Source: Catellatospora sp. KI3
GTDB lineage: Bacteria; Actinomycetota; Actinomycetes; Mycobacteriales; Micromonosporaceae
Direction of reading: 5' to 3'
Length of the DNA: 64,000 nt
Assembly: GCF_029948125.1 (NCBI RefSeq)
Contig: NZ_JASAMB010000009.1
Span: forward strand, 124,001 to 188,000
Under the pieces are notes generated by a model. That model saw only the letters and a program-made list of their open reading frames with translations, had not been told where the DNA came from and ran no database searches. The stretch's first letter is position 1, and every line of letters starts with the position of its first letter. Below are positions 24,036-57,066 of the stretch, piece after piece. The position numbers and the translations under genes were made by a program.

Positions 24036-24099
24036 CTGCAGTTTCGGGGAAAGTGCGCGAATCTTGGGCGCGATTCCGGCAGTTTCCCCGAAACTGCAG
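24036..24099. repeat. 64-bp palindromic repeat, copy A
   Basis: The arms start CTGCAGTTTCGGGGAAA on each strand and continue to GAATC, 28 nt each, around an 8-nt centre. Located 38 bp after the MFS stop. Member of a four-copy family in this window. Confidence 0.85.
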
Positions 24100-24224
24100 C
24101 CACGGTCGGCCGCCGCCGCGGCAGCAGCGGCGGCGGCGGCGGCAGGGGGCCGGGTCACGGCGCTGCAACAATCCTGCAAACGGTCATTCATTGACTTCGG
24201 TTGGCTCGCGCTGCACCGTAGTGG

Positions 24225-24242
24225 TTGGAATGCGCTTTCCAA
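24225..24242. promoter_or_regulatory. LacI-family-like operator dyad
   Basis: TTGGAATGCGCTTTCCAA is an 18-bp dyad with one mismatched pair around a central GCGC, the format of LacI-family sugar repressor sites. It lies about 308 bp upstream of the pectate lyase start, plausibly near its promoter. No LacI gene is in the window. Confidence 0.45.
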
Positions 24243-24549
24243 GCGGCGGCGGGACCGGGCGACCCGCTGCGTACCACCGGGGCGCGCACGGGCGCGGGCA
24301 GTCCGATCGCGCCTGACCGGGCAGCTCCGGTGCGCCCGGCGGCCCCACGGCTCCAGCGGTTCGAGCTGGACGCGACTGCCGGCGGCATCGGCCGCCGGAC
24401 CGCGCCGCGACGACCGACCCGATTCAGATCGAGCACAGCATCCACGCCAGAGGTGGTGGGTGGCCGCACCGGGCGACCGGTCAGGGTCCCGACCGCCTGC
24501 TCGGCGACCCCTGACGACGGCAGCAACCGAACCCGAAGGCGAGACCAGC

Positions 24550-26121
24550 ATGAACCGAAAAGTCCTATGGCGACTGGCCGCGACCGTGGCCACCACGACG
24601 GTCGCCGCCGCGGTCGGCGTGGCCCTGTCCGTGCCGCAGGCCTCGGCCGCGACCGGTGGCGTCACCGGCTTCGCGACCCAGAACGGCGGTACCACCGGCG
24701 GCGCGGGCGGCGCGACCGTGCGGGCGACCTCCGGCACCGCGATCCACACCGCGCTGTGCACCCGGGCCAGCAGCAGCACCCCGATCATCATCCAGGTCGA
24801 GGGGACCATCAACCACGGCAACACCACCAAGGTGTCCGGGTCCAGCTGCAACACGGCCGCCGACAAGATCGAGCTCAAGGAGATCAGCAACGTCACGATC
24901 ATCGGGGTCGGCGGCGGCGCGATCTTCGACCAGCTGGGCATCCACATCCGTGACTCGAACAACATCATCATCCAGAACGTGACGGTCCGGAACGTCAAGA
25001 AGTCCGGCTCGCCCCTGTCCAACGGCGGCGACGCCATCGGCATGGAGAGCACCGTCCGCAACGTCTGGGTCGACCACGTCAACCTCCAGGCGTCGGGCGG
25101 CGAGGCCGAGGGCTACGACGGCCTGTTCGACATGAAGGACGACACCAGGTACGTGACGCTGTCCTACAGCACCCTGACCAACTCCGGCCGCGGCGGCCTC
25201 ATCGGCTCCAGTGAGACCGACACCGGCAACGGGTTCATCACGTTCCACCACAACCTGTACCAGAACATCGACTCGCGTACGCCGCTGCTGCGCGGGGGCA
25301 TCGCCCACATCTACAACAACTACTACGTCAGCCTGAACGAGTCCGGCATCAACTCCCGGGCCGGGGCAAAGGCGAAGGTCGACAACAACTACTTCAAGAA
25401 CTCCATCGACGTGCTGGGCACGTTCTACACCGACGCGGCCGGGTACTGGCAGGTCAGCGGCAACATCTTCGACAACGTGACCTGGTCGGCGCACGACAGC
25501 GACCACAACCCGGCCGGGCCGAACCCGGTCTCCAACACCACCGTCAGCATCCCGTACGCCTACACCCTCGACCCGGCCAGCTGCGTGCCCAGCGTTGTCG
25601 CCGCCACCGCCGGTGCGAACAAGGGGCTGCAGGTCTCCAACGGCAGCTGCGTTCCGACCTCGCCGACGGCCGGACCGAGCAGCAGCCCGTCGCCGCGCCC
25701 GAGTGCCAGCACCTCGCCGACCAGCTCGCCGTCGCCGACCCCGAGCCAGCCCAGCGGCACGAACCTGAGCCTCAGCGGGGACTCCGACGGCTCCAGCAAG
25801 GCCAGCGGCACCAGCTACGGCAACGTCCGCGACGGCAGCATGACCACCTACTGGTCGCCGGCCGGCACCACCGGATCCATCTCGATCAAGTGGAGCACGG
25901 CCACCCGGGTAGCAAAGATCAACATCCGTGAGGCCTCGGGCGCGGTGGGCCTCATCGGCAACTGGCGGGTCATCAACGCCGACACCGGTGCCGTCCTGGC
26001 CACCGGTAACCGGGCGGGTGTCGTCAGCTTCACCGCGACCTCGCTGAAGAAGATCACCTTCGAGATCACCAGCGCGAGCGGCACCCCCAAGGTCGCCGAG
26101 TACGAGACGTACGCCAGCTGA
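24550..26121 (+). CDS. Secreted polysaccharide lyase family 1 pectate lyase with C-terminal discoidin-like module
   Basis: 523 residues; ATG 24550. A signal peptide spans residues 1-34 (ends ASA). The catalytic right-handed beta-helix (about 35-360) shows PL1 motifs: VRNVWVDHVNLQAS and DGLFDMKDDTRYVTLSYS (Ca-binding acids), then SRTPLLRGG with the catalytic Arg. A Pro/Ser linker (PSSSPSPRPSAS...) about 40 long leads to a 125-residue beta-sandwich like F5/8 type C/CBM modules (NVRDGSMTTYWSPAG). It cleaves polygalacturonate by beta-elimination outside the cell. A dyad at 24225 may mediate sugar control. Single gene with a strong terminator. Confidence 0.9.
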   Translation: MNRKVLWRLAATVATTTVAAAVGVALSVPQASAATGGVTGFATQNGGTTGGAGGATVRATSGTAIHTALCTRASSSTPIIIQVEGTINHGNTTKVSGSSCNTAADKIELKEISNVTIIGVGGGAIFDQLGIHIRDSNNIIIQNVTVRNVKKSGSPLSNGGDAIGMESTVRNVWVDHVNLQASGGEAEGYDGLFDMKDDTRYVTLSYSTLTNSGRGGLIGSSETDTGNGFITFHHNLYQNIDSRTPLLRGGIAHIYNNYYVSLNESGINSRAGAKAKVDNNYFKNSIDVLGTFYTDAAGYWQVSGNIFDNVTWSAHDSDHNPAGPNPVSNTTVSIPYAYTLDPASCVPSVVAATAGANKGLQVSNGSCVPTSPTAGPSSSPSPRPSASTSPTSSPSPTPSQPSGTNLSLSGDSDGSSKASGTSYGNVRDGSMTTYWSPAGTTGSISIKWSTATRVAKINIREASGAVGLIGNWRVINADTGAVLATGNRAGVVSFTATSLKKITFEITSASGTPKVAEYETYAS

Positions 26122-26134
26122 TCAGCACAGCCCG

Positions 26135-26170
26135 CACCGCGCCGCGGCCCTCACCGGCCGCGGCGCGGTG
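26135..26170. terminator. Bidirectional terminator hairpin
   Basis: CACCGCGCCGCGGCC (26135-26149) and GGCCGCGGCGCGGTG (26156-26170), a perfect 15-bp stem with a 6-nt loop, starting 13 bases after the pectate lyase stop and lying before the convergent GGDEF gene end. Confidence 0.8.
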
Positions 26171-26309
26171 ACCGATGAGCCAGCACGCCGGCCGGTGGTA
26201 TGCCTCCGGCCGCACAGCATCCGGGTCCGCACCGTCACCGCCGGCGGGATCAGCCGCAACACCGTCTTCACCAGCTCCGGAGTCCTGTCCCGGTACCGAC
26301 CGCGCGTGC

Positions 26310-28442
26310 TCACCGGCTCGGGCCCGCCTGGCTGAGGCCCGCACCCGGTTCGGCAGCCTCATCGACCAGGCCGAGCAGCGCGTCCACGACCGCCGGGTCG
26401 AACCGCGTACCCCGGCCCCGGGCCAGCTCGCTCCTGGCCTCGGACTCGCTCAGCGCGGCGGCGGGCGGCCGGCCCGCGCACAGGATCGCCCAGGCGTCGC
26501 ACACGGCGATGATCCGCGCGCCGACCGGGATGTCCGTGCCGGCCAGGCCGAGCGGGAAGCCCGTACCGTCGAAGTTCTCGTGGTGGGCCGCGACCAGCGG
26601 CGCGAGATCCGGCCGGTCCGCCAGCTCGACCAGCAGGCGGGCGCCCTCCTGCGGGTGGCGGCGCACCTCCTGCGCCGAGGGCGCGACCGCCGGGGAGGCG
26701 ACCTTGCCGACGTCGTGCAGCCGGGCCGCGGCGGCCGTGCGGCGCTGCGTCGCCGCGTCCAGCCCCAGCCGTACGGCCGTACGGATCGCCCACGCCGCCA
26801 CCGTCGCCCCGTGCGCGGGCTCGCCCGCCGCCGCGTCGATCCGGTCGGCCAGCCATACCAGCCCCGGTGGCAGCTCCGCCACCGGATCAGGCCTCGTGGG
26901 CGCCAGCCCCGAACCCACGACCCGGTCCCGCCCCAGCGCCTTCGCCCGGTACAGCGCCTGATCCGCCGCCTCGACCAGCTTCGCCACCTCGACCGGCCCC
27001 GCCTCGGCGGCGGCCACCCCGAACGACGCGGTCAGCAGGATCCGGGCGGAGCTGCCCCGTACCGTCACCGGTGTCCGGCAGAGCCCGGCCCGGATCCGTT
27101 CGGCCAGGTCGACCGCGGCCTGCCCGTCGGTGCCCGGCAGCAGGCAGGCGAACTCCTCGCCGCCATACCGGCAGATCAGGTCACCGCCGCGGACCGACCG
27201 CCGCAGCAACCGCGCCACCTCGGCCAGCACCGCGTCCCCCGTGGCATGCCCGTACGTGTCGTTGACCTCCTTGAAGTGGTCCAGGTCGAGCAGGATCACG
27301 CTCAACGGGGTGCCGTGCCGCTGCGCCGAGTCGGCCTCCACCACCAGCATCTCCTCGAAGTACCGCCGGTTGTACAGGTCGGTCAGCGAGTCGGTGACCG
27401 CCTCGCTGCGCAGCCGCTCGGCCACCCGCGAGCGCTCCCGCGACGCCCCGACCTGCCGCACCAGCAGCCCCACCAGCACCAGCAGCGTCACGCCCAGGGT
27501 CACCCGGGACAGCTCGCCGACCACGATCAGATCGGCCAGGGCGACCCCGCAGACGGTCACCACGGCCACCATCACCGGCACGAACGACAGGTCCGGCTCG
27601 ACCGTGGGCCGCTCGTCGGACTCCGCCGAGCGGCCGGCGACCACGGCGGCTATGCACAGCAGCACCGCCTCGGCCTGCCAGCCCATGTTCAACCAGCCCG
27701 CCGACTTGTACTCGTGCGCCAAGGTCAGGTACGCGTACGACGCGTCGGTCAGCGCCGCGATCCCGAAAGCCGCCCCGGCGATCACCATGGACCGGGGCGC
27801 CCGCTGCGGGCCGCTCAGCACCACCGCCGCCAGCACGCTGACCAGGGTCACCGACAGCACCGGGTAGATGAACGCGGTGATCGCCGAGGCGTCCCAGCTC
27901 TGCGGCATCAGCGGCCCCAGCAGCAGCTGCCAGCCGAGCGCGGCCCCGCCCGCCGCCACCAGCAGCGCGTCGATCATCCGGCGGGTCTGCCGCAGCAGAC
28001 CCGCCCCCAGCCCGACCACGATGGCCGGCACCGCCAGCAGGTACGAGATGAAGTAGCCGATGTCGGCCGGCGACGGGACCGGCACCTGGCCGGATTTCCG
28101 GTAGGCGTAGTAGGCCCAGGTGGACTCGCCGGCGAACCACAGCAGGTTCGAGCACGCCAGCAGGGTCCAGGCGGTGTGGACCCGGTGGCTGGTGCGGCGG
28201 GCGGCGTAGAAGCTCAGGGCGGCGGCGGCGCCGATGGGTACGAGATACACGACGTTGCCGACGAAAAGGGACGCGGATCGCGAATCCTGGGTGAAGAACA
28301 CCAGCGAGGCGTAGAACACCAGCCAGGCGATGCCGAGGAGCACAGTCGTCAGCACGACCCGGTCGGGAGCGGCTCCCTTCAACCGGGTCGGCCCGATCCT
28401 CTCCCTCAGCCTCGTGGCGACCTCCGGCCCTGCCCACTGCAC
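26310..28442 (-). CDS. Membrane GGDEF diguanylate cyclase with C-terminal HD-GYP-like domain
   Basis: 710 residues, GTG start at 28442. Roughly nine to ten membrane segments occupy residues about 30-345. The GGDEF domain (about 360-520) has SLTDLYNRRYFEE, LDLDHFKEVND and an intact GGEEF, with RGGD five residues before it, so the inhibitory I-site is present. An HD domain follows (RLHDVGKVASP) with HHENFDGTGFP, where GYP is replaced by GFP. It could thus both make and degrade cyclic dinucleotide. Whether the HD-GYP part is active is open. It is monocistronic, convergent with the pectate lyase. Confidence 0.9.
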   Translation of the reverse strand: MQWAGPEVATRLRERIGPTRLKGAAPDRVVLTTVLLGIAWLVFYASLVFFTQDSRSASLFVGNVVYLVPIGAAAALSFYAARRTSHRVHTAWTLLACSNLLWFAGESTWAYYAYRKSGQVPVPSPADIGYFISYLLAVPAIVVGLGAGLLRQTRRMIDALLVAAGGAALGWQLLLGPLMPQSWDASAITAFIYPVLSVTLVSVLAAVVLSGPQRAPRSMVIAGAAFGIAALTDASYAYLTLAHEYKSAGWLNMGWQAEAVLLCIAAVVAGRSAESDERPTVEPDLSFVPVMVAVVTVCGVALADLIVVGELSRVTLGVTLLVLVGLLVRQVGASRERSRVAERLRSEAVTDSLTDLYNRRYFEEMLVVEADSAQRHGTPLSVILLDLDHFKEVNDTYGHATGDAVLAEVARLLRRSVRGGDLICRYGGEEFACLLPGTDGQAAVDLAERIRAGLCRTPVTVRGSSARILLTASFGVAAAEAGPVEVAKLVEAADQALYRAKALGRDRVVGSGLAPTRPDPVAELPPGLVWLADRIDAAAGEPAHGATVAAWAIRTAVRLGLDAATQRRTAAAARLHDVGKVASPAVAPSAQEVRRHPQEGARLLVELADRPDLAPLVAAHHENFDGTGFPLGLAGTDIPVGARIIAVCDAWAILCAGRPPAAALSESEARSELARGRGTRFDPAVVDALLGLVDEAAEPGAGLSQAGPSR

Positions 28443-28578
28443 GTCCGTACCAAGTCTCGCGCGCCGAGCCCCGGTCCGAGAACGAACCGCGGGGACCAGA
28501 GCGGCGGCGGATCGTCGCCGCGTGCGTGCGATAACGCGAGCGGGCTCCGGTGGTGCCTGAGGACCCGGGCCCCGGCCC

Positions 28579-29043
28579 CTACCCCCGGTCAGCCGGGTCG
28601 GCCGACGGCGGCGTGCTGCGGGCGGGGATCGAGGCCGAGACCAGCAGCGCCAGTGCCCAGCAGCTGACGGCGCTCCAGGTGACCAGCGCGCTGGTCTCGC
28701 CGCCCGCTGACTCGGTGAACTCGGCCACCAGCGCGATCACGGCGATGACCAGTGCGAAGCCGCCGAGGAACCCGGCGGGGAGCCGGTGGCCGTGGCGCCA
28801 GGCGGCATGGGCGGCGTAGGCGAGCAGCGCGGCGACGGCCAGGGTGAAGACCACCAGCAGAACGGCCGTGACCAGGCCCGCGCCGCTCAGCGCCATGTCG
28901 TTCCGGCCGAACACGTCGCCCGAGGTGATCAGCAGCATGAGCACCGCCGCCGTCGCGGCCGCGCCGACCGCGCACAACCAGGCCGCGACCAGGCGGGCCG
29001 CCTGCGGCCGGGTGGCCTGCGGCATTCCCGGGGGTTCAGACAT
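28579..29043 (-). CDS. Four-helix integral membrane protein of unknown function
   Basis: 154 residues from ATG 29043 (MSEPPGMPQATRPQ). Four hydrophobic segments (LVAAWLCAVGAAATAAVLMLL, LVTAVLLVVFTLAVAALLAYAA as cut here into parts, FLGGFALVIAVIALVAEF, LVTWSAVSCWALALLVSA), and hydrophilic ends. No family motif recognised. It precedes the GGDEF gene on the same strand with a 136-bp gap, so co-transcription is possible. Confidence 0.7.
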   Translation of the reverse strand: MSEPPGMPQATRPQAARLVAAWLCAVGAAATAAVLMLLITSGDVFGRNDMALSGAGLVTAVLLVVFTLAVAALLAYAAHAAWRHGHRLPAGFLGGFALVIAVIALVAEFTESAGGETSALVTWSAVSCWALALLVSASIPARSTPPSADPADRG

Positions 29044-29349
29044 GGCGCCAGCGTACCCACGCTGTCGATGGCGGTCGATGAGGTCGCCGCCGGGGCCGTG
29101 GGTCGGATGGGCCCATGCCGTCTGATCAGAGGGGTCGAAGCGTCCGGACCCGCCGTCGGTCACCGAGACGGGGGCGATCGTATGGCTTGCCCGTTCAGAG
29201 GATGGAGGGTTTCTTAACAGTTCTTTCACGAGTCCGCAACAGACACCGGCGGTCGGCATCCTGACTGCGTGACAGGTACCTCGCGGGGGACTGTGGAGTA
29301 CACGCCGTCACCCGGCGTGATCATCCATCAACCATGAAAGCGAGCGCCT
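29044..29349. other. Divergent intergenic region
   Basis: 306 bases between the membrane-protein gene (minus) and the HAF-repeat gene (plus). An AT-richer patch with CTTAACAG and TTCTTTCACG near 29213-29230 is the likely promoter area. A small ACGCCG-tcac-CCGGCGT hairpin lies near 29302. No ORF is credible. Confidence 0.45.
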
Positions 29350-30360: not shown

Positions 30361-30528
30361 CCACGGTGGCCGGCGCCCCTGCCAGGGACGTCGGCCACCT
30401 CCGTCCGCCGCGTCCCGCGCGACTACCGGTTCAGGCGATCTCCCGGACCGCGATTCCGCTCGCCGGGTGCCGGCCATCCGGTTCGTACCGAATCCCGGCA
30501 CGCTCTGTGATCATGATTGGATGTCGTG

Positions 30529-32068: not shown

Positions 32069-32112
32069 CGACCCGCGGCAGCAGCGGTCGGCGCGGCCTT
32101 GATACTCGGCGG

Positions 32113-34754: not shown

Positions 34755-35051
34755 TGTCTCGCCCCGACCCGACCCCTCACCTCCTCCGCGCCCGCCCTGC
34801 CCCCCACTGCCATAGGCGCTGGCCTATCACGTCTATTTCGATCGAGCCGCATCCGATGCGATAGGCCACCGTCTGTGGAAGGCGTCGGCGGCGGGCGCCC
34901 GGGGCGTCGTCCCTGTCGGGCGGGCATGCTCGGTGGGCCGGCTCGGCGGTAGGCCCATCCCCGACAGTCGCAAGGCCGACGGGCCGTGGCGCGCCGCCGT
35001 CGTACGCCCGCATCGTGAGGGCACTTCGCCCACCGATACGAGGAGATGACG
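34755..35051. other. Intergenic region upstream of the protease gene
   Basis: No gene. TGGCCTATC (34820-34828) and GATAGGCCA (34860-34868) form a 9-bp inverted pair 31 bases apart, a possible operator or hairpin. GAGGAG at 35040-35045 is the protease ribosome site. Confidence 0.4.
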
Positions 35052-36347
35052 ATGGCTCGATGGAAGCGGCCGGCGTTCGGGGCCGCCGCGCTGGTCCTGG
35101 CCATTGCGGTGCTGCCGCCCGGCGCCGCGACGGCGGCCCGGCAGGCCGAAGCGGCAGCGGCGGCGGCCGCCGCCGCGGCGGATCCGTTCGCCGAGGAGGC
35201 GGTCGGGTTCGCCAAGGAGCGCGGCATCAGCGAGACCGAAGCCCGACAGCGGCTGGCTTGGCAGCTGGTCGCGCCGGACCTGGACGAGCGGCTGGCCCGC
35301 GAGCTCGGCACCCGCTACGGCAACGTGTGGATCGACGTGCGCGACGGCGACCGGGTCAAGGCCGGGGTGACCGGAGAGGTCGACGACCAGGTGCGGGGCG
35401 TCGTGAAGGCGGCCGCGGCGGCGGTGGGCCTCACCGACGGGTACGACGTCGTCGCGGTCAAGCGGTCGGCGGCCAAGCTCGCGGCCGACAACGACTGGCT
35501 GGCCGAGCAGGTCATCCGCACCAACCCGGGCGCGGAGGCGCCGCTGAGCGTGGGCGTCCGTACCGACCTCAACGCGCTGATGCTGCACATCCCGCGTACG
35601 GGCACGCTCACGGCGGCGCAGAAGGATCTGATCACGACGGCGCAGGCCCGGCTCGGCGCCGGACTGGTCCTGGGCACCTCCAACGGGGCGTTCAAGCCGT
35701 TCGCGTGCGACGTGCCGTACTGCGACAAGCCGCTGCGCGGCGGGGTGAAGATCAACCACCCGTCGACCTGGTGCACCGCCGGGTTCATCGCGCAGAGCAA
35801 GGTGGACAGCGTCAAGTACGTCGTCACCGCCGGGCACTGCACGGCCGAGCACACCGGCACCTGGAGCAGCAAGAACACGGCGCTCACGGCGACCGACATC
35901 GGGCCGGTGCACCGCACGTTCCTCGACACGTACATCGGGGACATGGCGATCATCCGGATCAGCGACTCGTCGGCGACCGGCTGGAATCCGCAGCCGTGGG
36001 TGCTGGTCACGTTCAGCTTCCAGACCACCGAGAACACGACGTACCACATCGCGTCGGACAAGACGAGCGTCGTCGGGATGCGCATCTGCACCACCGGTGC
36101 GGCCACCCGGGTCACCAACTGCTCCCACGTGGAGGAACTCGGCCTGACCGCGAGCGTCGACGGGCTGACCATGCGCAACCTGGGCCTGACCGAGAACTGC
36201 GCCAAACCCGGTGACAGCGGCGCGCCCATGTTCGCCAGCCACGTCGGCTACGGCATCCTGATCGGCGGCGACGAGGACGACTGCGAGGTCATCTACCAGG
36301 GCATCCGCGCCGCCGAACGCGAACTGAACGTCAACATCCTGCACTGA
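35052..36347 (+). CDS. Secreted trypsin-like (S1 family) serine protease with propeptide
   Basis: 431 residues from ATG 35052, six bases after GAGGAG; ATG 35046 abuts that site and is less likely. A signal peptide and an alanine run (about 1-45) are followed by a propeptide of about 170 residues. The protease domain has His262 in TAGHC, Asp297 in YIGDMAIIRI and Ser389 in PGDSGAP, a complete triad, plus Cys pairs typical of disulfides. It is chymotrypsin-fold, related to streptogrisin-like proteases but with a divergent N-terminal part. Extracellular protein degradation is likely. Repeat copy B follows 20 bp after the stop. Confidence 0.88.
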   Translation: MARWKRPAFGAAALVLAIAVLPPGAATAARQAEAAAAAAAAAADPFAEEAVGFAKERGISETEARQRLAWQLVAPDLDERLARELGTRYGNVWIDVRDGDRVKAGVTGEVDDQVRGVVKAAAAAVGLTDGYDVVAVKRSAAKLAADNDWLAEQVIRTNPGAEAPLSVGVRTDLNALMLHIPRTGTLTAAQKDLITTAQARLGAGLVLGTSNGAFKPFACDVPYCDKPLRGGVKINHPSTWCTAGFIAQSKVDSVKYVVTAGHCTAEHTGTWSSKNTALTATDIGPVHRTFLDTYIGDMAIIRISDSSATGWNPQPWVLVTFSFQTTENTTYHIASDKTSVVGMRICTTGAATRVTNCSHVEELGLTASVDGLTMRNLGLTENCAKPGDSGAPMFASHVGYGILIGGDEDDCEVIYQGIRAAERELNVNILH

Positions 36348-36366: not shown

Positions 36367-36430
36367 GTGCGGTTTCGGGGAAAGTGCTCGAATCGAAGCC
36401 ATGATTCCCGCACTTTCCCCGAAACCGCAC
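36367..36430. repeat. 64-bp palindromic repeat, copy B
   Basis: Two 28-nt arms beginning GTGCGGTTTCGGGGAAAGTG, differing at only two positions, around GAAGCCAT. It fills the gap between the convergent protease and TetR genes. Relative to the other copies it carries paired changes in both arms. Confidence 0.9.
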
Positions 36431-36434
36431 CGCG

Positions 36435-36998
36435 TCACGCGGTGGTGATGCCCGCGAGCATCGTGTGGATGGCGGGGGTGGGGTCGAAGGCGGGGTCGGG
36501 GCAGGCGAGTTGGATGGCGACCAGGCCGTCGACCAGGGCGAGCAGGCTCAGGTAGTCGGTGCGGGGATCGGGGGAGCCGAGCCGGGCGACCCAGGGGACG
36601 CCCCAGCCGGCCAGCCGGTCGCGCGCGGCGCCGATCTTCTCCTGTAGTTCGGGCTGAAACGCCGCCTCGTGGAAGACCGCGTGCCGGGCCAGGGTCAGGT
36701 GCCGCGCGGGTCCGGTGAGCTGGTGCACCATCGCCGCGATGAGCTGCGCGAACTCTGCGGTGGAGGTGGGTGGGGCGGTGCGCTCGGCGACCAGCTGCTG
36801 CCATACCTGCGTCTCGATCTCGACGAGGCGGTCGAGCACCGCGCCGACCAGGGCGTCGCGGGTGCGGTACCCGTTGGAGGTCGATCCTTCGGGCAGGCCC
36901 GCCTGCGCGTCGACGGCGCGGTGGGTCAGCGCCCGCAGCCCGCGCGTGCCGAGCACCGCGATGGCGGCGTCGAGGATCTGCTGCCTGCGATCGGACAT
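36435..36998 (-). CDS. TetR family transcriptional regulator
   Basis: 187 residues from ATG 36998. N-terminal HTH: RRQQILDAAIAVLGTRGLRALTHRAVDAQAGLPEGSTSNGYRT is the TetR pattern (its parts lie at residues 4-46). The C-terminal ligand domain is helical and family-specific. It is divergent from the FAD monooxygenase gene and shares a 56-bp promoter gap containing two 14-bp operator units, so it very likely represses both genes; the inducer may be the monooxygenase substrate. Confidence 0.9.
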   Translation of the reverse strand: MSDRRQQILDAAIAVLGTRGLRALTHRAVDAQAGLPEGSTSNGYRTRDALVGAVLDRLVEIETQVWQQLVAERTAPPTSTAEFAQLIAAMVHQLTGPARHLTLARHAVFHEAAFQPELQEKIGAARDRLAGWGVPWVARLGSPDPRTDYLSLLALVDGLVAIQLACPDPAFDPTPAIHTMLAGITTA

Positions 36999-47045: not shown

Positions 47046-48635
47046 TCACGGGTGGGTGCGGTAGGCGGCGTGGTCGAAGTCGGCGGGGTGGCCACGGCCG
47101 GTGAGGTCCCAGACCCAGAGGCCGACGAAGGCGCCGGTGAAGCCCAGCGCGCCGAGCTGGTCGCCGTCGAACTCGACGGCGTGCTCGTCGGACAGGACCG
47201 TGGCGTCCAGCGGCTCGCCGAAGGGGCGCCAGCCGTCAGGACCCCCGAAGCGGAACGACAGCTCGCCGTCGCGGATGTCCAGACCCAGGTGCACCGGCCC
47301 GGCGGCGGGCGCGGCCACCGCCGGGTGCACGGTCAGCACGCCCCGGTCCCGGGTGGCCGCGCGCAGCACCCGGGCCCCGGTGTCGTCGGCGGTGAGGTGG
47401 AGCAGGTGCCAGTTGCGGCTGTTGTAGTACGCCGTGATGCCCGCGAGGTGCTGGAAGGCGGTCGGTTCGAAGTCGGCCACGGCTTCGAAGGAGCAGCGCG
47501 GCTGGGTGACCCGGCGGGCGACCAGGCTCTGCCCGGTACGGCTCTGCGGCGAGCGGCCGCCCCGGATGCGCAGGTGCGACGGGCGGTCGGTCAGCGACAG
47601 CCAGCCCGGATCGGCGGGCCGCCGCAGCGTCGACCACTGCGGACCGAGTCCTGCCTGGTCGAACTCGTCGACCTCGGACTCGTCCGAGAGTCCTGTGTGG
47701 TCGGGCGGCAGCAGGCTGGGGGCGTGCAGTGACGGCAGGCCGTCCACGACGGTCGGCCAGCCGTCCTCGGTCCAGCTCACCGCCGTGATCGCGGTCTCGC
47801 GGCCGAGGACGCACGGGCCCTGCCGCCCCTCGGGGCGGGCCACGAGGTAGGCGAGGTACCAGTCGCCGTCACCGGCCCGTACCAGGCTGCCGTGCCCTGC
47901 TTTCTGCAGTGGCCAGTCGGGCCGGTGCCTGGCGGTCAGCAGCGGACCGCCCGGGTCGCGCTCGTAGGGGCCCGCCAGCTCGCGCGACCGGCAGACGCTC
48001 ACCTGGTGGTCGTAGCCGGTGCCGCCGTCGGCGGTCAGCAGGTAGTACCAGCCGCCGTGCCGGTACAGGTTGGGGCCCTCGATCCACCCGGCACCCGGCG
48101 GCAGCTGGATGCGGACCGGCTCGCCGGTCAGGCGCCGGGTGGCCCGGTCGTAGCGGACGGCCTCCAGCCCGGCGCTGCCGCCGTACCCGGGGCGCCAGTC
48201 ATGGACCAGGTTGAGCAGCCAGCTCGTGTCGCCGTCGTGGTGCAGCGAGGCGTCGAACCCCCGCGCGTGCAGCAGCACCGGATCCGACCACGGCCCCGTG
48301 ATCGACGCCGCGGTGACCAGGTAGTTCGGGCAGTCCGTGAACCCGCCCGAGTACGTCGAGACGTTGCTGTAGACGAGGTGGAACAGCCCGTCGACGTGGG
48401 TGAGGTTGGGTGCCCACACGCCGCCGGAGTCCGGGCAGCCGGCCAGGTCCAGCAGCCGCGCCGTGTCCAGGACGCCGCCCAGCGGGGTCCAGTTCGCCAG
48501 GTCCCGCGAGTGGTGCACGCGTACGCCCGGATACCACTCGAAGGTCGACGTGGCCAGGTAGAAGTCGTCGCCGACGCGCACGATGGACGGGTCTGGGTGC
48601 GAGCCGGGCAGCACCGGATTGGGGATCTGCGGCAC
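47046..48635 (-). CDS. Glycoside hydrolase family 43 (beta-xylosidase-like)
   Basis: 529 residues, GTG 48635. The five-bladed propeller (about 5-310) shows PVLPGSHPDPSIV with the catalytic base Asp, FDASLHHDGD with the pKa-modulating Asp, and GAGWIEGPNLY with the catalytic Glu. The C-terminal beta-sandwich (about 340-525) has NSRNWHLLHLT and VEFDGDQLGALGFTGAFVGLWVWDL, as in XynB-type beta-xylosidases/arabinofuranosidases. No signal peptide, so it acts on imported xylo-oligosaccharides. A LacI-type box lies 14 bp upstream of the start, consistent with sugar-controlled repression. Confidence 0.93.
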   Translation of the reverse strand: MPQIPNPVLPGSHPDPSIVRVGDDFYLATSTFEWYPGVRVHHSRDLANWTPLGGVLDTARLLDLAGCPDSGGVWAPNLTHVDGLFHLVYSNVSTYSGGFTDCPNYLVTAASITGPWSDPVLLHARGFDASLHHDGDTSWLLNLVHDWRPGYGGSAGLEAVRYDRATRRLTGEPVRIQLPPGAGWIEGPNLYRHGGWYYLLTADGGTGYDHQVSVCRSRELAGPYERDPGGPLLTARHRPDWPLQKAGHGSLVRAGDGDWYLAYLVARPEGRQGPCVLGRETAITAVSWTEDGWPTVVDGLPSLHAPSLLPPDHTGLSDESEVDEFDQAGLGPQWSTLRRPADPGWLSLTDRPSHLRIRGGRSPQSRTGQSLVARRVTQPRCSFEAVADFEPTAFQHLAGITAYYNSRNWHLLHLTADDTGARVLRAATRDRGVLTVHPAVAAPAAGPVHLGLDIRDGELSFRFGGPDGWRPFGEPLDATVLSDEHAVEFDGDQLGALGFTGAFVGLWVWDLTGRGHPADFDHAAYRTHP

Positions 48636-48648
48636 CGGATGAGACTAA

Positions 48649-48662: not shown

Positions 48663-49082
48663 CGCCGCGCGCCCGCGCCTTGACGAGGCGGCAGTCTCGG
48701 GGAAGGCGCAGGAAAGAGCGCCGAGATTCCTGCACTCTCCCCGAAACTGCACGCACACACGGGTTTAAGAGGAGGGCCGCGCGGGTATCCCGGGCGCGGC
48801 AGCCGACTTCTCCCCACGCAGCGTGGGAGCCCGCCGTTAACCGCAGTCCGAGGGGCATCCGGACGCGGTCACCCTGCGGAGTAACCGGCTGTCCGGGCTC
48901 GGTCGGTGGCGCACGGTAGCGGCCGGCGTCGAGCGCAAGCCCAGTCGCCGCGCCCCCGGCGGCTGGGCTTCGGCCGTCCCCGCAGGACGCCGACGCGCAG
49001 GTCACGCCCGGGTTAGCCTGGATACGGTGGCGGAGCAGCGCCGTCCGGCCACCTCAGGCAAGGCCGGAAGGAGGCCGCCAGC
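48663..49082. other. Intergenic region between GH43 and USP genes
   Basis: 420 bases with no credible ORF. Contains repeat copy C, a CCCACGC-a-GCGTGGG dyad (48813-48827) and a likely USP promoter area near its right end; otherwise nothing recognised. Confidence 0.5.
48689..48752. repeat. 64-bp palindromic repeat, copy C (degenerate)
   Basis: Right arm (reading the other strand) starts GTGCAGTTTCGGGGAGAGTG; the left arm has drifted at several positions (GGCAGTCTCGGGGAAGGCGC). Same 64-bp length as the other copies. Confidence 0.8.
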
Positions 49083-49922
49083 ATGCAGACCCTGGAGCGC
49101 CCGATCACCGTCGGCATCGACGGGACCACGACGTCCCAGCCCGCGATCGACTGGGCGGCCGACACCGCGCTGCGGCACGACCTGCCGCTGAAGCTCGTCT
49201 ACGTGATCGACTCGCCCGGTCCCCGGGTGGGCTACGACTACATCTCCCGCGAGCTCGACGAGGCCGGAGCCGACGCGGCCACCCGCGCCCGCGACGCCGC
49301 CCTGGCCGGCCACCCCGGCCTGACCGTGCAGACGGCCACGGTCAACGACGACAGCACCCACGCGCTGATCAACGAATCCGACCACGCCAGCATGATCGTG
49401 GTCGGCAGCCGGGGGCACAGCGGCTTCTACGACATGGTCATCGGCTCGACCAGCCTGCATACCGCGATGCACGCGCACTGCCCCGTCGCGGTGATCCGGC
49501 CGCGCACCGACGACCCCGCCAACCCGGCGCGCGGCCGGGTCGTGGTGGGCGTCAGCTCGTCGCCGTACGCGGTGCACGCGCTCGGCCTTGCGTTCGAGGA
49601 GGCGGCGCTGCGCGGGGTCGGGCTGACCGCCGTACACGTGCGGCCACGCCACGGCGACGCGGCCAAGGACGAGGCCGCGCTGGCCGCCATGTTCGACCCG
49701 TGGACCAAGCGCTATCCGGCCGTGGACGTGGACCGGGTCGACCTGGACGGCGACCCCGCCAAGGTGCTGACGCAGTTCTCCAACGGCGCCGAACTGCTGG
49801 TCTCCGGCTGCCGGGGGCACGGCGGCGTCGCCGGGCTGCTGCGCGGGTCGACCAGCCAGGCGATGCTGCACCACGCGGGCTGCCCGGTCCTGGTCGTACA
49901 CGACCACGACCCCGTCGGCTGA
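49083..49922 (+). CDS. Tandem universal stress protein
   Basis: 279 residues containing two USP domains. Each has the ATP-binding glycine motif: GSRGHSGFYDMVIGSTS near 117 (G-2x-G-9x-GS/T) and GCRGHGGVAGLLRGSTS near 248. PVAVIRPR and CPVLVVHDHD end the two domains. Such proteins are common in actinomycetes under hypoxic or redox stress. The next gene pair (two-component system) starts 78 bp later on the same strand, which suggests a possible link but not proof of an operon. Confidence 0.9.
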   Translation: MQTLERPITVGIDGTTTSQPAIDWAADTALRHDLPLKLVYVIDSPGPRVGYDYISRELDEAGADAATRARDAALAGHPGLTVQTATVNDDSTHALINESDHASMIVVGSRGHSGFYDMVIGSTSLHTAMHAHCPVAVIRPRTDDPANPARGRVVVGVSSSPYAVHALGLAFEEAALRGVGLTAVHVRPRHGDAAKDEAALAAMFDPWTKRYPAVDVDRVDLDGDPAKVLTQFSNGAELLVSGCRGHGGVAGLLRGSTSQAMLHHAGCPVLVVHDHDPVG

Positions 49923-49999
49923 GAAGGTAGGGCTGGGCATACCCCGGAACTATGCGCAGCGGGCTGGGGCCGTGCCGCCGCCGTCGATAGCGTGGTCAC

Positions 50000-51313: not shown

Positions 51314-51960
51314 CCCGGGTCGTCCTCGCCGAGGACGGGGTGCTCCTGCGCGAGGGCCTGACCGGCGTGCTGGCCCGGTTCGGGTTCGAGGTGGCGGCGG
51401 CGGTCGGGGACGCCGACAGCCTGCTGCGGGCCGTCGCCGAGCACCGGCCCGACCTGGTGGTGACCGACATCCGGATGCCGCCCGGCCAGTCCGACGAGGG
51501 GCTGCGCGCGGCGGCGGAGCTGCGGTCGCGGCAGCCCGGACTGCCCGTGGTGGTCCTCAGCCAGCACGTCCAGCCCGAGTACGCCGAAGCCCTCCTCGAC
51601 AGCGGCGACGGCCGGGCCGTCGGCTACCTGCTCAAGGACCGCGTCGCCGACCTGGCCGACTTCGTCGCCGCGCTGCGCACCGTGGTCGGAGGCGGCACCG
51701 TCATCGACCCGGAGGTGGTCCGGCGGCTGATGCGCCGGCCGCGCGACCCGCTGGCCACGCTGTCGGCCCGCGAGCGCGAGGTGCTGGCGCTGGTGGCCGA
51801 GGGCAACTCGAACGCGGCCATCGCCCGGCGCCTGTTCGTGACCGAGGCGGCCGTCGGCAAGCACATCGGCAGCATCCTGGCCAAACTCGACCTGCCGCAG
51901 ACCGACGACACCAACCGCCGCGTGCTGGCGGTGCTGGCCTACCTGCGCGCGGGCGGCTGA
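51310..51960 (+). CDS. LuxR-family response regulator
   Basis: 216 residues, GTG at the overlap with the kinase gene. The receiver domain (1-120) has the acidic pair AED, the phospho-Asp in LVVTDIRMPP and Lys in YLLKDRV. The LuxR HTH (about 150-210): TLSAREREVLALVAEGNSNAAIARRLFV (in parts) and VGKHIGSILAKLDL. It would activate genes in response to the membrane kinase. Its last 22 bases overlap the convergent DUF5996 gene. Confidence 0.92.
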   Translation: MTRVVLAEDGVLLREGLTGVLARFGFEVAAAVGDADSLLRAVAEHRPDLVVTDIRMPPGQSDEGLRAAAELRSRQPGLPVVVLSQHVQPEYAEALLDSGDGRAVGYLLKDRVADLADFVAALRTVVGGGTVIDPEVVRRLMRRPRDPLATLSAREREVLALVAEGNSNAAIARRLFVTEAAVGKHIGSILAKLDLPQTDDTNRRVLAVLAYLRAGG

Positions 51961-52856
51961 GCCCACTCCAGCTCCGCCCGGTCCCACCCGGCCAGGTCGG
52001 CGGCCGACTCGTAGGTGTGCTGGCAGAACTCCAGCAGCACCGCGTCCGGGTCGTCGGCCTGCGCCACGGCCTCGTACGGCAGCGCGAACTCGCCGAGCTG
52101 GCCGTCGTAGTGGGCACCGGGCGGGACCCGGTCGCGGAAGCCGGGCGGCTCCGGGTAGGCGTACGCGTAGAAGAGGCCCTGCCCGCCGCCGCCCGGCCAG
52201 TAGCCGCAGCTGCTCACCTCGTGGCTGTAGGCCTCGTGGCTGACCCGGTCGGGGCAGTTGGGCACCCCGCCCGGGTGCAGCGGCGCGGGCCGCCCCGAGA
52301 ACCGGGTCACCGCCAGGTCGAACGCGCCCCAGAAGAAGTGCACCGGGCTGACCTTGCCGATGAAGCGGGCCCGGAACGCGGTCATCACCCGGTGCGTCTG
52401 CACCAGCGACAGCCAGAACGCGTGCGCGAACTCCGGATCGTAGGCGCAGTGCTGCCGGTCGTCGGCGAACGGCACCACCTCCGGCAGCTCCACCGGCCGT
52501 CCCATCAGGTCGACGCCGATCTCCAGCTCGGCCAGCCGGGCCAGCACGTCGGCGTAGAAGTCGGCGACCGACCGGTCGCGCAGGTCCACTTCGGCGGCGC
52601 GCCCGTCGGTGGTGCGCACGTCCAGCACGTGCCGCCGGAAGTCGAAGACCATTTCCACCCCGATGGCGCCGTACGGCATGAGCGACGTGGTCAGGCCACG
52701 GCTGTCGACGTACAGCGGCACCTGCCACCAGTGGTTGACCATCGGCTCCAGCGCCAGCCGCACCTTGCCCACGATCTGCGTCCACAGCTGCAGCGTGTCG
52801 CGGGTGTCGGCCCACCGGTCCAGCGGCAGCGCCGGCCACGCGCCGCGCGAGGTCAC
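51939..52856 (-). CDS. DUF5996 family protein
   Basis: 305 residues, GTG 52856. Starts WPALPLDRWADTRDTLQLWTQIVGKVRLAL (in parts) and has NHWWQVPLYVDSRGLTT, MPYGAIGVEMVFDF, PVHFFWGAFDLAVTRFSGR and FYAYAYPEPPGF, characteristic of DUF5996. No catalytic function is known. It overlaps the methyltransferase gene upstream by GTGA (52853-52856), so the two are co-translated. Its 3' end overlaps the response regulator gene by 22 bp. Confidence 0.85.
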   Translation of the reverse strand: MTSRGAWPALPLDRWADTRDTLQLWTQIVGKVRLALEPMVNHWWQVPLYVDSRGLTTSLMPYGAIGVEMVFDFRRHVLDVRTTDGRAAEVDLRDRSVADFYADVLARLAELEIGVDLMGRPVELPEVVPFADDRQHCAYDPEFAHAFWLSLVQTHRVMTAFRARFIGKVSPVHFFWGAFDLAVTRFSGRPAPLHPGGVPNCPDRVSHEAYSHEVSSCGYWPGGGGQGLFYAYAYPEPPGFRDRVPPGAHYDGQLGEFALPYEAVAQADDPDAVLLEFCQHTYESAADLAGWDRAELEWAQPPARR

Positions 52857-53551
52857 AGCCTGCTCCGTCCCCGCGCGCCCAGGTCGCCCTCCAGGCGGTA
52901 CACGCAGATCTGCTCCAGCTCGGCGTCGACGAACGCCTGCGCGCTCGGCGCCCGGTAGCAGGCGAGCCGGGTCAGCCCCTCGGGCGGCAGGTGGCCCCGG
53001 TCCGGGTCGCCGAGCAGCACCTGCGCGCCCCCGGCCGCGGCCCGCTGCAGGAATCCGAGCATCCGCTCGGCCACCTGCGACTGGTAGAGCACGTCCCCGG
53101 CGAGCACGACGTCGGCGTCGGTGCCGCCGTCGAGCAGGTCGCCGAGCCGGCCCGTGACGGTGGCGCGGTTGGCACGGGCGTTGTGCGCGATCGCGGTGAT
53201 CGCGTACGGGTCGACGTCGTTGGCCTCGACCTCAACCGCCCCGGCCAGCGCCGCCGCGATCGCGGCCAGCCCCGAACCCGACGCGAGGTCGAGCACCTTG
53301 CGCCCGGCCACCACCTCCGGCCTGTCCAGCAGGTACCGGGCCAGCGCCTGCCCGCCCGCCCACGCCGACGCCCAGTACGGCGCCGTCAGCCTGCTCCCGG
53401 CCTCGGCCTCCATCCGCGCCCACCACACGATCGAGTCGACCGCGGTGTACAGCCGTATCTCGGGCACCAGCGGCACCGAGGTCAGCTGCAGCCGATCCAG
53501 CCCTTCGGCGCTGGGAGCGCGCAGTTCCCGTTCCAGGTCGATGACTCCCAT
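52853..53551 (-). CDS. Class I SAM-dependent methyltransferase
   Basis: 232 residues from ATG 53551; a GTG at 53569 is an alternative. The SAM site is VLDLASGSGLAAIAAALAGA near 90, with VEANDVDPYAITAI next and VLAGDVLYQSQVAERML (D-V-L-Y in place of NPPY). The sequence YWASAWAGGQALARYLLD before the SAM site is typical of ETFB-lysine/nicotinamide N-methyltransferase-like proteins. The target is probably a protein lysine or small amine. It is upstream of DUF5996 in a two-gene unit. Confidence 0.85.
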   Translation of the reverse strand: MGVIDLERELRAPSAEGLDRLQLTSVPLVPEIRLYTAVDSIVWWARMEAEAGSRLTAPYWASAWAGGQALARYLLDRPEVVAGRKVLDLASGSGLAAIAAALAGAVEVEANDVDPYAITAIAHNARANRATVTGRLGDLLDGGTDADVVLAGDVLYQSQVAERMLGFLQRAAAGGAQVLLGDPDRGHLPPEGLTRLACYRAPSAQAFVDAELEQICVYRLEGDLGARGRSRL

Positions 53552-53727
53552 TCGGCTTCTCACGTACACAGGATGCCCCTTCCGGGCGGGAAATCACCGC
53601 AGACCACGGTTTCGGAAGCCACAAAAAGCCACGCGATCACTCCGACCGGGGTTAGGGTCAGGTGCACGTGGGGCGGGGGTCGCGCCGCGACACAGGCACA
53701 CCGCCTCACCGCTGAAGGAGAAAGAGT

Positions 53728-53931
53728 ATGCCAACGGGCACCGTGAAGTGGTTCAACGGCGAAAAGGGCTTCGGCTTCATCGAGCAGGACGGTGGCGGAC
53801 CTGACGTCTTCGTGCACTACTCGGCGATCACCGGCAGCGGGTACCGCGAGCTGCAGGAGGGGCAGAAGGTGGACTTCGAGGTGACGCAGGGTCAGAAGGG
53901 ACCGCAGGCGGCCAACGTACGTCCGCTCTGA
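53728..53931 (+). CDS. CspA-family cold shock protein
   Basis: 67 residues, the standard CSP size. RNP1 is KGFGFIEQ and RNP2 is VFVHYSAI, with the start [17 protein letters not shown] shared by actinobacterial CSPs. It binds single-stranded nucleic acid as an RNA chaperone. AAGGAGAAAG precedes the ATG at 7 bases. It has its own leader of about 100 bases and a near-perfect terminator. Confidence 0.95.
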
Positions 53932-53983
53932 AGACCGTGACGGCCGTCCACCAGACGGCCTTCCATGCTGGATCGCACAGGAC

Positions 53984-54019
53984 GAGAACGGGTTGGACCC
54001 TCGGGTCCAGCCCGTTCTC
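53984..54019. terminator. Terminator hairpin of the cold shock gene
   Basis: GAGAACGGGTTGGACCC (53984-54000) and GGGTCCAGCCCGTTCTC (54003-54019): 17 pairs with a single G-U, minimal loop. Confidence 0.75.
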
Positions 54020-54075
54020 GCTGCTCCGGTGGCGGTAGAATCGATCTTCAGGACTACGCGAGGACGGTTGGTGAG

Positions 54076-54477
54076 ATGCAGCCGATGACGCCGATGTACC
54101 GCGACGAGCAGGATCTGAGCCACGACATGCGGACCGCGTGCGTGCACGCCTGCAACACCTGCGCCGAGGTGTGCAACGCCTGCGCCGACGCCTGCCTGGG
54201 CGAGCCCGAGGTCGCCGACCTGGTCCGCTGTATCCGGACCAACCTCGACTGCGCCGACATGTGCGCCACCGCCGCCGAGGTGCTGGACCGCTTCCGCGGC
54301 GACCACCCGGAGCTGGTCCGGGCCGTGCTGGACGCCTGCGCGATCGTGACGGCCGCCTGCGCCGACGAGTGCCGCGAGAACGCCGACCGGTACGCCCACT
54401 GCAAGGCCGCCGCCGACGCCTGCGACCAGGCCACCGCCGCCTGCACCGCCATGCTCCGCGAACCGGCCCTGCTCTGA
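54076..54477 (+). CDS. Four-helix bundle copper-binding protein (DUF326/Csp)
   Basis: 133 residues from ATG 54076. Cysteines recur in helical spacing: CVHACNTCAEVCNACADACL (residues about 20-39), CIRTNLDCADMC, ACADECRENADRYAHCKAAAD and ACDQATAACTAM (in pieces). This is the DUF326/Csp pattern in which Cys line the core of a four-helix bundle and store Cu(I). No signal peptide, so a cytosolic Csp3-like type. GGTGAG precedes the start closely. It is bounded by terminators. Confidence 0.88.
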   Translation: MQPMTPMYRDEQDLSHDMRTACVHACNTCAEVCNACADACLGEPEVADLVRCIRTNLDCADMCATAAEVLDRFRGDHPELVRAVLDACAIVTAACADECRENADRYAHCKAAADACDQATAACTAMLREPALL

Positions 54478-54487
54478 CCCGACCACG

Positions 54488-54524
54488 CGGAAGGGGCGCC
54501 CCAGCGTGTGGAGCGCCCCTTCCG
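54488..54524. terminator. Bidirectional terminator
   Basis: CGGAAGGGGCGC (54488-54499) and GCGCCCCTTCCG (54513-54524), perfect 12-bp arms, between convergent Csp and lon genes. Confidence 0.75.
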
Positions 54525-54534
54525 TACCGCCCGG

Positions 54535-56871
<2,337 letters not shown>

Positions 56872-56894
56872 TATCAGACACCTGCCATTCGCTA

Positions 56895-56915
56895 CTTGAG
56901 TCTGCTCGGCTCAAG
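56895..56915. promoter_or_regulatory. HAIR element (HspR operator) of lon
   Basis: CTTGAGT-7 nt-GCTCAAG; the consensus is CTTGAGT-N7-ACTCAAG, so one base differs. Located 24 bp upstream of the lon ATG. HspR represses dnaK, clpB and lon in streptomycetes and releases on heat shock. Confidence 0.85.
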
Positions 56916-57002
56916 TCCAGCGCCCCGCCCCTTGTTCCACCCTCCCCACCCAATGTGACCCACGCCACTTCGTCGCCCGCCCCGCCCCCGGCGCCATGAT
57001 CG

Positions 57003-57066
57003 CTGCAGTTTCGGGGAAACTGCAGGTAAGCGGGCCAGGATTCCAACACTTTCCCCAAAACTGCAC
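57003..57066. repeat. 64-bp palindromic repeat, copy D
   Basis: The left arm starts CTGCAGTTTCGGGGAAACTG, the right arm (other strand) GTGCAGTTTTGGGGAAAGTG. Inside the 357-base gap upstream of lon, which otherwise holds only the HAIR site and no ORF that I can support. Confidence 0.85.

What the first reader, a model, noticed from the sequence alone, without database searches (positions are those of the whole stretch)
24036..57066. A family of four exactly 64-bp palindromic intergenic repeats
Copies lie at 24036-24099, 36367-36430, 48689-48752 and 57003-57066. Each has two 28-nt arms with consensus S-TGCAGTTTCGGGGAAAGTGC followed by NGGAATC, and an 8-nt centre. All are intergenic, next to gene ends or starts. 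Copy B differs from the others at arm positions 1 and 5 in both arms together, i.e. compensatory changes, which argues for selection on pairing or for recent copying as a unit. I know of no described actinomycete repeat with this sequence. It could be a REP-like element mobilised by a RAYT transposase, a nucleoid-protein or replication-related site, or a transcription terminator.
Basis: seen in the sequence. Interest (0 to 1): 0.8.

Follow-up and report, generated by a model that had tools for sequence, protein, structure and literature searches.

The report
REP-like hairpin repeats of Catellatospora
A 64-base hairpin-forming repeat lies mostly just after gene ends, more than 150 times in the genome of this soil actinomycete; it is built like the REP/REPIN repeats of other bacteria but lacks their tag and their known transposase, so what copies it and what it does are open questions.

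Summary
The window's genome has 154 strict inverted pairs and 525 arm hits with up to one mismatch; reversed controls are 0. The pair occurs in 11 of 11 Catellatospora genomes (3 to 154 copies), in 0 of 139 other genomes of the family, and in 1 of 396 genomes of the phylum, the window's own. Arms lie exactly 41 bp apart in 168 of 172 pairs under 60 bp. In 800 kb, copies lie near stop codons: 23 convergent, 23 tandem, 5 divergent, 1 inside a called gene. The arms covary as one long hairpin, while stem positions 18 and 23 stay G/C without pairing. In sister species a copy is nearly intact or gone.

The build matches REP doublets (REPINs), but tags and RAYT/Y1 transposase were tested and not met; target duplications and a T-run are also missing. 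I read it as an untagged, RAYT-less REP-doublet family acting as a hairpin at mRNA 3' ends; function and mobiliser are inferred. Other palindrome families with recurrent spacing share the intergenic space.

The parts
24036..24099 (.). Copy A of the 64-bp palindromic doublet; tandem gap, 37 bp downstream of the stop of a called MFS gene (22802-23998 +), 450 bp before a pectate-lyase-like gene (24550-26121 +)
   Evidence: Pfam; RNA fold
36367..36430 (.). Copy B; convergent gap between a trypsin-like gene (35046-36347 +, 19 bp) and a TetR-type regulator (36435-36998 -, 4 bp); carries two compensated outer-pair changes
48689..48752. Copy C, the most degenerate of the four (4 mismatches over both 19-mers); divergent gap between a GH43 gene (47046-48635 -) and a universal-stress-protein gene (49083-49922 +)
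57003..57066 (.). Copy D; tandem gap between a called gene without Pfam match (57229-57711 -, stop 162 bp away) and the Lon protease gene (54535-56871 -, start 131 bp away)

Best explanation
A genus-wide family of REP doublets (REPIN-like architecture): two inverted ~19-bp near-palindromes, 41 bp apart, that together make one long, imperfect hairpin. SHOWN: copy number, fixed spacing, placement near stop codons, covariation of the long stem, near-intact-or-absent presence at orthologous loci, slower divergence of arms than of centre and flanks, more own-only copies than in two sister species. INFERRED: that copies spread as a unit by an unidentified mobiliser that is not a Y1/RAYT enzyme (or is no longer encoded), and that copies after stop codons are kept because the hairpin acts at mRNA 3' ends (a barrier to 3'-to-5' RNases and/or a bidirectional transcript end between convergent genes). 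The two G/C stem positions that do not pair are proposed to keep the palindrome imperfect.
For: 154 strict pairs, control 0; genus-only as sampled. Offset 41 in 168 of 172 inverted pairs under 60 bp (3 at 40, 1 at 37). In 800 kb: 23 convergent, 23 tandem, 5 divergent, 1 inside a called gene; convergent gaps are 16.5% of placeable intergenic bp, p 1.7e-6; divergent 33.2%, depleted, p 1.5e-4. In 400 kb each, G008 has 7 convergent, 8 tandem, 0 divergent and G007 4, 3, 0. 21 of 22 tandem copies are nearer the upstream stop than the next start. Stem covariation: arms without position 18, 2883 of 3024 Watson-Crick cells against 2853 (sd 3.7) column-shuffled; repeated in 55 own-genome copies (932 of 990 against 921, 0 of 500 shuffles) and 83 other-species copies (1433 of 1494 against 1421, 0 of 500). 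28 orthologous pairs: arm 3.1/42 and centre 5.3/22 differences, 50-bp flank identity 0.56 against 0.49 random; 1532 non-orthologous pairs: 4.7/42 and 8.9/22. Third codon positions differ by 13.5 and 15.1%. Orthologous gaps of G008 and G009 hold 0-3 or at least 15 arm mismatches of 38, with one intermediate (8), in 51 gaps. Own-only copies: 9 of 27 testable in both sisters; G008-only 1 of 14, G009-only 1 of 14. Centres of own-genome copies are alike (7.5/22 differences, shuffled 15.3), in low-copy species much less (12.2, shuffled 14.7).
Against: No transcript data. No T-run. Mutual exclusion with other hairpins, which a 3'-end function would predict, is clear only in the pooled, non-independent count of four genomes (convergent 14 of 42 against 129 of 195; tandem 3 of 39 against 128 of 568) and weak when length-matched in the own genome (convergent 0.455 against 0.616, 8.6% of draws as low; tandem 0.095 against 0.268, 4.6%). 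Sister gaps that lack the element hold another strong hairpin in only 9 of 27 (3 of 13 in G009, 6 of 14 in G008, two of the latter being the same gap), no more than gaps in general. The arm constraint is modest: arms differ by 7.4% while alignable intergenic sequence in long blocks differs by 9.9-11.4%; both figures are conditioned on being recognisable. In 5 of 28 orthologous pairs the reverse complement fits better, so some may be inversions or independent insertions. Mobility has no direct proof: no clean empty site in 8 inspected, no clear target duplication, no parent element; own-only copies do not carry the presumed master centre clearly more often (5 of 9 against 7 of 18). Single stem changes outnumber compensated ones (134 to 16). 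Template-switch correction could keep a palindrome self-complementary without selection.
Confidence: 0.45

Rival explanations
1. Purely selfish miniature elements with no host function, seen near gene ends only because insertions elsewhere are removed.
For: Copy number ranges from 3 to 154 in one genus; 9 own-only copies against 1 and 1 in sisters; a 3'-intergenic bias is what selection against promoter and gene insertions would leave; most sister gaps without the element have no other strong hairpin (18 of 27); arm constraint is modest against alignable intergenic sequence.
Against: Copies seem not to decay gradually: nearly intact or absent at orthologous loci; arms change more slowly than centre and flanks. 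One search looked for degenerate remains and found one in 51 gaps of G008 and G009.
Confidence: 0.25
2. Double-stranded DNA site: a protein (or gyrase, as proposed for E. coli REPs) binds the two 19-bp dyads, 41 bp (about four helical turns) apart, and organises the chromosome or absorbs supercoils between convergent genes.
For: The arm sequence, including the GGG between the half-sites, is conserved as strongly as the paired bases; spacing is fixed; position 18 stays G/C without pairing; direct arrays also have 40-42 bp steps; origin-proximal bias.
Against: The long stem covaries, the mini-palindromes do not; the direct arrays look like tandem duplications of unit plus spacer; the positional bias is shared by an unrelated family; copy number 3 to 154 within the genus is odd for a chromosome-organising site.
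Confidence: 0.2
3. Ordinary intrinsic (Rho-independent) bidirectional terminators.
For: Stable hairpins after stop codons, enriched between convergent genes.
Against: No T-run: 1.07 T per 12 nt (n 68) against 2.24 (n 169) for the other hairpins; farther from the stop than other hairpins (tandem median 43.5 against 17 bp); a terminator would need neither a fixed sequence nor a fixed length.
Confidence: 0.07
4. Classical RAYT-mobilised REPINs.
For: Doublet architecture, fixed spacing, variable centre, compensatory changes, as in the passages of PMC3116915 seen.
Against: No Y1_Tnp match in the three richest genomes, all rated 100 for completeness; no GTAG/GGAG/CGTC tag at a fixed place.
Confidence: 0.03

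Closest known systems
REPINs / REP doublets (PMC3116915; passages seen)
   Same: Inverted pair of short conserved sequences; preferred spacing; less conserved spacer whose length matters; unit predicted to fold as a hairpin with compensatory changes; extragenic; many copies.
   Different: No RAYT/Y1 gene in the copy-rich genomes; no GTAG/GGAG head; actinomycete host; bias to gene ends (REPINs of SBW25 are described as randomly distributed in extragenic space); sequence differs.
CGTC-tagged REPs (PMC3733652; abstract and passages seen)
   Same: No dedicated transposase known; mostly head-to-head dimers; mainly between convergent and unidirectional genes; unlike halves often preferred without obvious reason (compare the preferred mispair 23:42 here).
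   Different: No CGTC tag here; the phyla listed for CGTC repeats do not include Actinobacteria, and that word stem has 0 occurrences in its main text.
BIMEs / REPs of E. coli
   Same: Inverted REPs near gene ends, with proposed roles in mRNA stability and gyrase binding (passages of PMC3733652, PMC12306157, PMC2817692 seen).
   Different: Sequence, tags and clustering differ (partly recalled).
MITEs
   Same: Short, fixed length, inverted repeats, copy-number differences (general knowledge, recalled).
   Different: No clear target duplication; no convincing parent element with widely spaced arms in the 2.06 Mb read.

Membership tests
REPIN (REP doublet with RAYT) | Two inverted REPs at a fixed distance, unit forms one hairpin | tested here: met
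   Offset 41 in 168 of 172 pairs under 60 bp; stem covariation; folds
REPIN (REP doublet with RAYT) | Each REP is itself an imperfect palindrome | tested here: inconclusive
   The sequence is a near-palindrome but the mini-stems show no covariation
REPIN (REP doublet with RAYT) | GTAG/GGAG head next to the palindrome | tested here: not met
   GTAG in 14 of 336 flanks (0.042, expected 0.045), GGAG 32 of 336 (0.095, expected 0.102), no fixed position
REPIN (REP doublet with RAYT) | A RAYT (Y1 tyrosine transposase) in the genome, flanked by the REPs | tested here: not met
   PF01797: 0 matches in G000, G008, G009; matches in 6 of 11 genus genomes, none of these three. Whether those 6 genomes' genes are flanked by arms was not tested
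REPIN (REP doublet with RAYT) | Extragenic, tens to hundreds of copies | tested here: met
   51 of 52 intergenic in 800 kb; 154 strict pairs in the own genome, 3 to 148 in congeners
CGTC-tagged REP | CGTC tag at one end | tested here: not met
   CGTC in 70 of 336 flanks (0.208, expected 0.178), spread over positions
Intrinsic terminator | Hairpin after a gene end | tested here: met
Intrinsic terminator | T-run directly after the hairpin | tested here: not met
   1.07 T in 12 nt, n 68, against 2.24, n 169
Intrinsic terminator | Stops RNA polymerase | not testable with these tools
   needs a transcription assay or Term-seq
MITE of a DDE transposon | Target-site duplication | tested here: not met
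   Direct flank repeats of 2, 3, 4, 5, 6, 8 nt at nine boundary shifts: no strong excess; largest are 2 nt at shift -1 (48 of 168, expected 32) and 3 nt at shift +3 (10 of 168, expected 4.5), with orthologous copies counted apart
Known RNA family | Match to an Rfam model at gathering score | tested here: not met
   0 matches in the whole window

The most novel reading that the evidence does not exclude
Catellatospora carries a guild of sequence-unrelated palindromic repeat families with recurrent spacing (this one at 41 bp, others at 45, 43 and 41 bp) that settle in the same intergenic space and in some loci take each other's place between sister species at ~91% identity, none with a known mobiliser. 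This would mean an undescribed, non-HUH mechanism that makes and moves ~60-bp hairpins, and a genus whose transcript ends are partly built from interchangeable mobile hairpins.
Probability: 0.18. Interest if true: 0.78.

Novelty: new variant of a known kind. Interest (0 to 1): 0.5.

Why it matters
REP doublets are described mainly from Proteobacteria and explained by RAYT transposases; for the CGTC class, which seems to lack a dedicated transposase, what moves the repeats and why dimers are often unlike is left open in print (PMC3733652, passages). The same two questions appear here in an actinomycete with a natural experiment: sister species at ~91% identity with copies present or absent at the same gap. 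That makes mobiliser and 3'-end function testable by strain comparison and Term-seq.

Tried and rejected
RAYT mobilisation: rejected for the copy-rich genomes. Origin-proximal bias as evidence for a chromosome-organising site: not specific, an unrelated family shows the same. Direct arrays as proof of protein phasing: dropped, they look like tandem duplications of unit plus spacer. A hidden direction of the element: an EM search did not beat a null with shuffled halves (LL -4835; 15 nulls, mean -4848, sd 15.8, max -4827). Target duplications: none clear. Replacement by other palindromes as a rule: tested and not borne out; 9 of 27 sister gaps. Parent element with widely spaced arms: in 2.06 Mb one inverted pair of lone arms 0.3-6 kb apart, 5.4 kb, both with 4 mismatches, the level at which reversed sequence also gives hits. 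GATC flanks: no overall excess (49 of 336, expected 0.158) but a cluster at -6 to -8 (33 of 336), unexplained. Rfam: nothing. Literature: searches and for four arm strings in full texts (0 papers) found no report of this repeat in the held library, which lacks most subscription papers. REP candidates as such have been predicted in Actinomycetota (three species in a table of PMC12306157, passage seen).

Mistakes: one search used a wrong spacer (18 instead of 22) and found 0; one search repeated the search correctly. One search used a wrong gap for the second palindrome family and its 0 is not evidence; one search corrected it, on 61 genomes. One search ended in an error after printing its tables (the slid control did not run); one search failed on an N; one search replaced it with 167 of 168 copies.

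Limits: gene calls are my own. Elements were found by arm mismatch thresholds, so degenerate copies can be missed. Pooled counts mix orthologues of sister species; the pooled set of 168 (of 169, one identical window dropped) holds 4 reverse-complement duplicates. Only 28, 27 and 28 of the 52 copies in the 800 kb could be tested in G008, G009 and G007, of which 400 kb each was fetched; one search left out 1, 3 and 4 of these gaps by length. Searches with exact patterns miss diverged relatives. The G007 control list of 65 arm hits was merged to 58 sites (arms under 200 bp apart).
Full report
What was checked. The window is 64 kb of an unnamed 8.2-Mb genome, G000.

Copy number and range. The 15-base arm core with up to one mismatch occurs 258 + 267 times in G000 and 0 times reversed. 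The strict pair occurs 154 times in G000, 148 in G008, 90 in G009, and 44, 43, 36, 33, 22, 16, 4 and 3 times in the other eight congeners; 0 of 139 genomes of other genera in the family have it. Of 396 genomes spread over the phylum only the window's own has it. These searches demand exact arms, so diverged relatives would be missed.

Anatomy. I read 800 kb of G000, 400 kb each of G008, G007 and G009, the window and 70 named loci. Inverted arms under 60 bp apart have an offset of 41 in 168 of 172 cases (40 in three, 37 in one); eight more combinations at 78 to 144 bp were seen once each. Lone units are few: 5 of 108 in the 800 kb of G000, 1 of 31 in G008, 2 of 32 in G009, 5 of 21 in G007, with 2, 1, 4 and 3 units in the reversed controls. 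Symmetrised consensus: TGCAGTTTCGGGGAAASTGC, then GGAATC and a GGCC centre, mirrored. Each arm is itself a near-palindrome. No hidden direction was found.

Pairing. Against column shuffles the arm pairs (without position 18) form more Watson-Crick pairs than expected in the pooled 168 copies (2883 of 3024 against 2853, sd 3.7), in the 55 own-genome copies and in 83 copies of other species (0 of 500 shuffles each). Compensated double changes number 16 against 3.3 expected, beside 134 single changes. Two positions behave differently: 18:47 stays G or C on both sides but pairs no more than chance (z 0.4), and 23:42 pairs LESS than chance (54 against 81, z -4.4; -2.9 and -2.7 in the two subsets). 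The mini-palindromes inside the arms do not covary. So the structure that evolution tracks is the long hairpin or cruciform, with built-in defects. Template-switch correction could also produce covariation; I cannot separate it from selection.

Location. Of 52 copies in 800 kb, 23 lie between convergent genes, 23 between tandem genes, 5 between divergent genes and 1 inside a called gene; in 400 kb each, G008 has 7, 8, 0, 0 and G007 4, 3, 0, 0. Placeable intergenic sequence in the 800 kb is 16.5, 50.3 and 33.2% (convergent p 1.7e-6, divergent p 1.5e-4). In tandem gaps 21 of 22 copies are nearer the stop of the upstream gene (median 43.5 bp) than the next start (median 139.5 bp). They have no T-run: 1.07 T in 12 nt against 2.24 for other hairpins.

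Evolution. G000, G008 and G009 are about 91% identical to one another and 83% to G007. Copies of G000 are shared at the same place with G008 in 14 of 28 testable cases, with G009 in 14 of 27, with G007 in 2 of 28; conversely 14 of 15 G008 and 14 of 15 G009 copies are found in G000. At orthologous gaps of G008 and G009 the element is nearly intact (0 to 3 mismatches of 38) or at background level (15 or more), with one intermediate (8) among 51 gaps. In 28 orthologous pairs the arms differ by 3.1 of 42, the centres by 5.3 of 22, and 50-bp flanks have identity 0.56 (random 0.49); non-orthologous pairs differ by 4.7 and 8.9. In 5 of the 28 the reverse complement fits better, so a few may be inversions or independent insertions. 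Third codon positions differ by 13.5 and 15.1%, alignable intergenic sequence in long blocks by 9.9 and 11.4%; against the latter the arm constraint is modest. Nine of 27 copies testable in both sisters are unique to G000, against 1 of 14 in each sister, which suggests recent gains in the window's lineage; these nine do not clearly carry the presumed master centre more often (5 of 9 against 7 of 18).

Other palindromes in the same space. A de novo scan finds strong inverted repeats in 66 of 91 convergent, 72 of 236 tandem and 10 of 125 divergent gaps of the 800 kb (shuffled 1, 1, 0); 48 of the 164 repeats are the present element. Some of the rest are families with a recurrent offset: 45 bp in 30 of 31 inverted pairs, 43 bp in 4 of 5, 41 bp in 5 of 7; two further candidates are weaker (51 bp in 1 of 2; 27 bp the commonest of many). 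The 45-bp family has 58 strict pairs in G000 and none in 60 other family genomes sampled, G001 and G007 among them, but occurs in G008 and G009. The arm of the 41-bp one occurs in 11 of 11 congeners and in 4 of 139 genomes of two other genera. Do they replace the present element? In alignments of eight own-only sites a different palindrome can be seen in a sister at some (for example C1:26120, where G009 and G008 each have another), but counted over all gaps lacking the element, another strong hairpin is present in 3 of 13 in G009, 6 of 14 in G008 (two are one gap) and 11 of 26 in G007. Gaps with the element hold another hairpin less often than gaps without (convergent 14 of 42 against 129 of 195, tandem 3 of 39 against 128 of 568, four genomes pooled); length-matched in G000 alone the effect is weak. 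So the idea that one hairpin per gene end is needed is allowed, not shown.

Mobiliser. Y1_Tnp (PF01797) gives 0 matches in G000, G008 and G009, and also none in G001 and G010; the other six congeners have matches. No GTAG, GGAG or CGTC tag is enriched at a fixed place next to the arms. No clear target duplications. No convincing pair of widely spaced lone arms in the 2.06 Mb read.

Known relatives. In the passages I saw, REPINs are REP doublets with preferred spacing, variable spacer and compensatory changes, tied to RAYTs (PMC3116915); CGTC REPs seem to lack a dedicated transposase, form mainly head-to-head dimers, often of unlike halves, and REPs lie mainly between convergent and unidirectional genes; untagged REP-like families are mentioned for M. 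tuberculosis and D. radiodurans among others (PMC3733652); RAYT genes were described as always flanked by two inverted REPs (PMC2817692). A 2025 survey tabulates REP candidates in three Actinomycetota, none of them Micromonosporaceae (PMC12306157, passage). I file the element as REP-doublet-like, not as a REPIN or a CGTC REP, because tag and transposase were tested and not met.

Verdict. Real, genus-specific as sampled, REPIN-like in build, without the known engine, sitting at gene ends. The most likely job is at the mRNA 3' end as a hairpin; that step is inferred, and a purely selfish repeat is not excluded. It is a new variant of a known kind, with an open question worth a Term-seq run and a strain comparison.

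Noticed in passing
G000:C1 (L018-L057), e.g. C1:78366-78459, 110830-110907, 275721-275804; also G008, G009: A second palindrome family (arm GACGCTGGCCTATC, offset 45 in 30 of 31 inverted pairs; 20 convergent, 9 tandem, 2 divergent in 800 kb); 58 strict pairs in G000, 0 of 60 other family genomes sampled.
   Followed up: partly
G000:C1:10536-10617 and congeners: A third palindrome (arm TTGATCATGAACTTATGG, offset 41 in 5 of 7 pairs); its arm is in 11 of 11 congeners and 4 of 139 genomes of two other genera, with the same origin-proximal bias in G007 as the present element.
   Followed up: partly
G000:C1:290733-290796: A copy of the present element lies inside the loop of the third palindrome family: nested palindromes.
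   Followed up: no
2-4 nt outside the 64-bp elements: GATC clusters at -6 to -8 from the arm (33 of 336 flanks) without overall excess; some other palindromes also begin and end with GATC.
   Followed up: no
G000:C1:389805, 791724 (second family) and 207745 (a GTTGCCGGGCAA-type palindrome): The 8-mer AATCTTGG, almost confined to centres of the present element (27 of 31 intergenic hits in 800 kb), also sits in the centre of two copies of the second family and of one GTTGCC-type palindrome.
   Followed up: no
L188:2061-2204 (G001:C30), L189:1714-1773 (G007), G007:C1:2519855-2520000: Direct arrays of two to four arm units at 40-42 bp steps, apparently tandem duplications of unit plus spacer.
   Followed up: partly
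G000:C1:51099-51162: One copy falls inside a called gene on the minus strand, yet G009 and C. tritici have it at the same place; either a wrong gene call or an intragenic copy.
   Followed up: no
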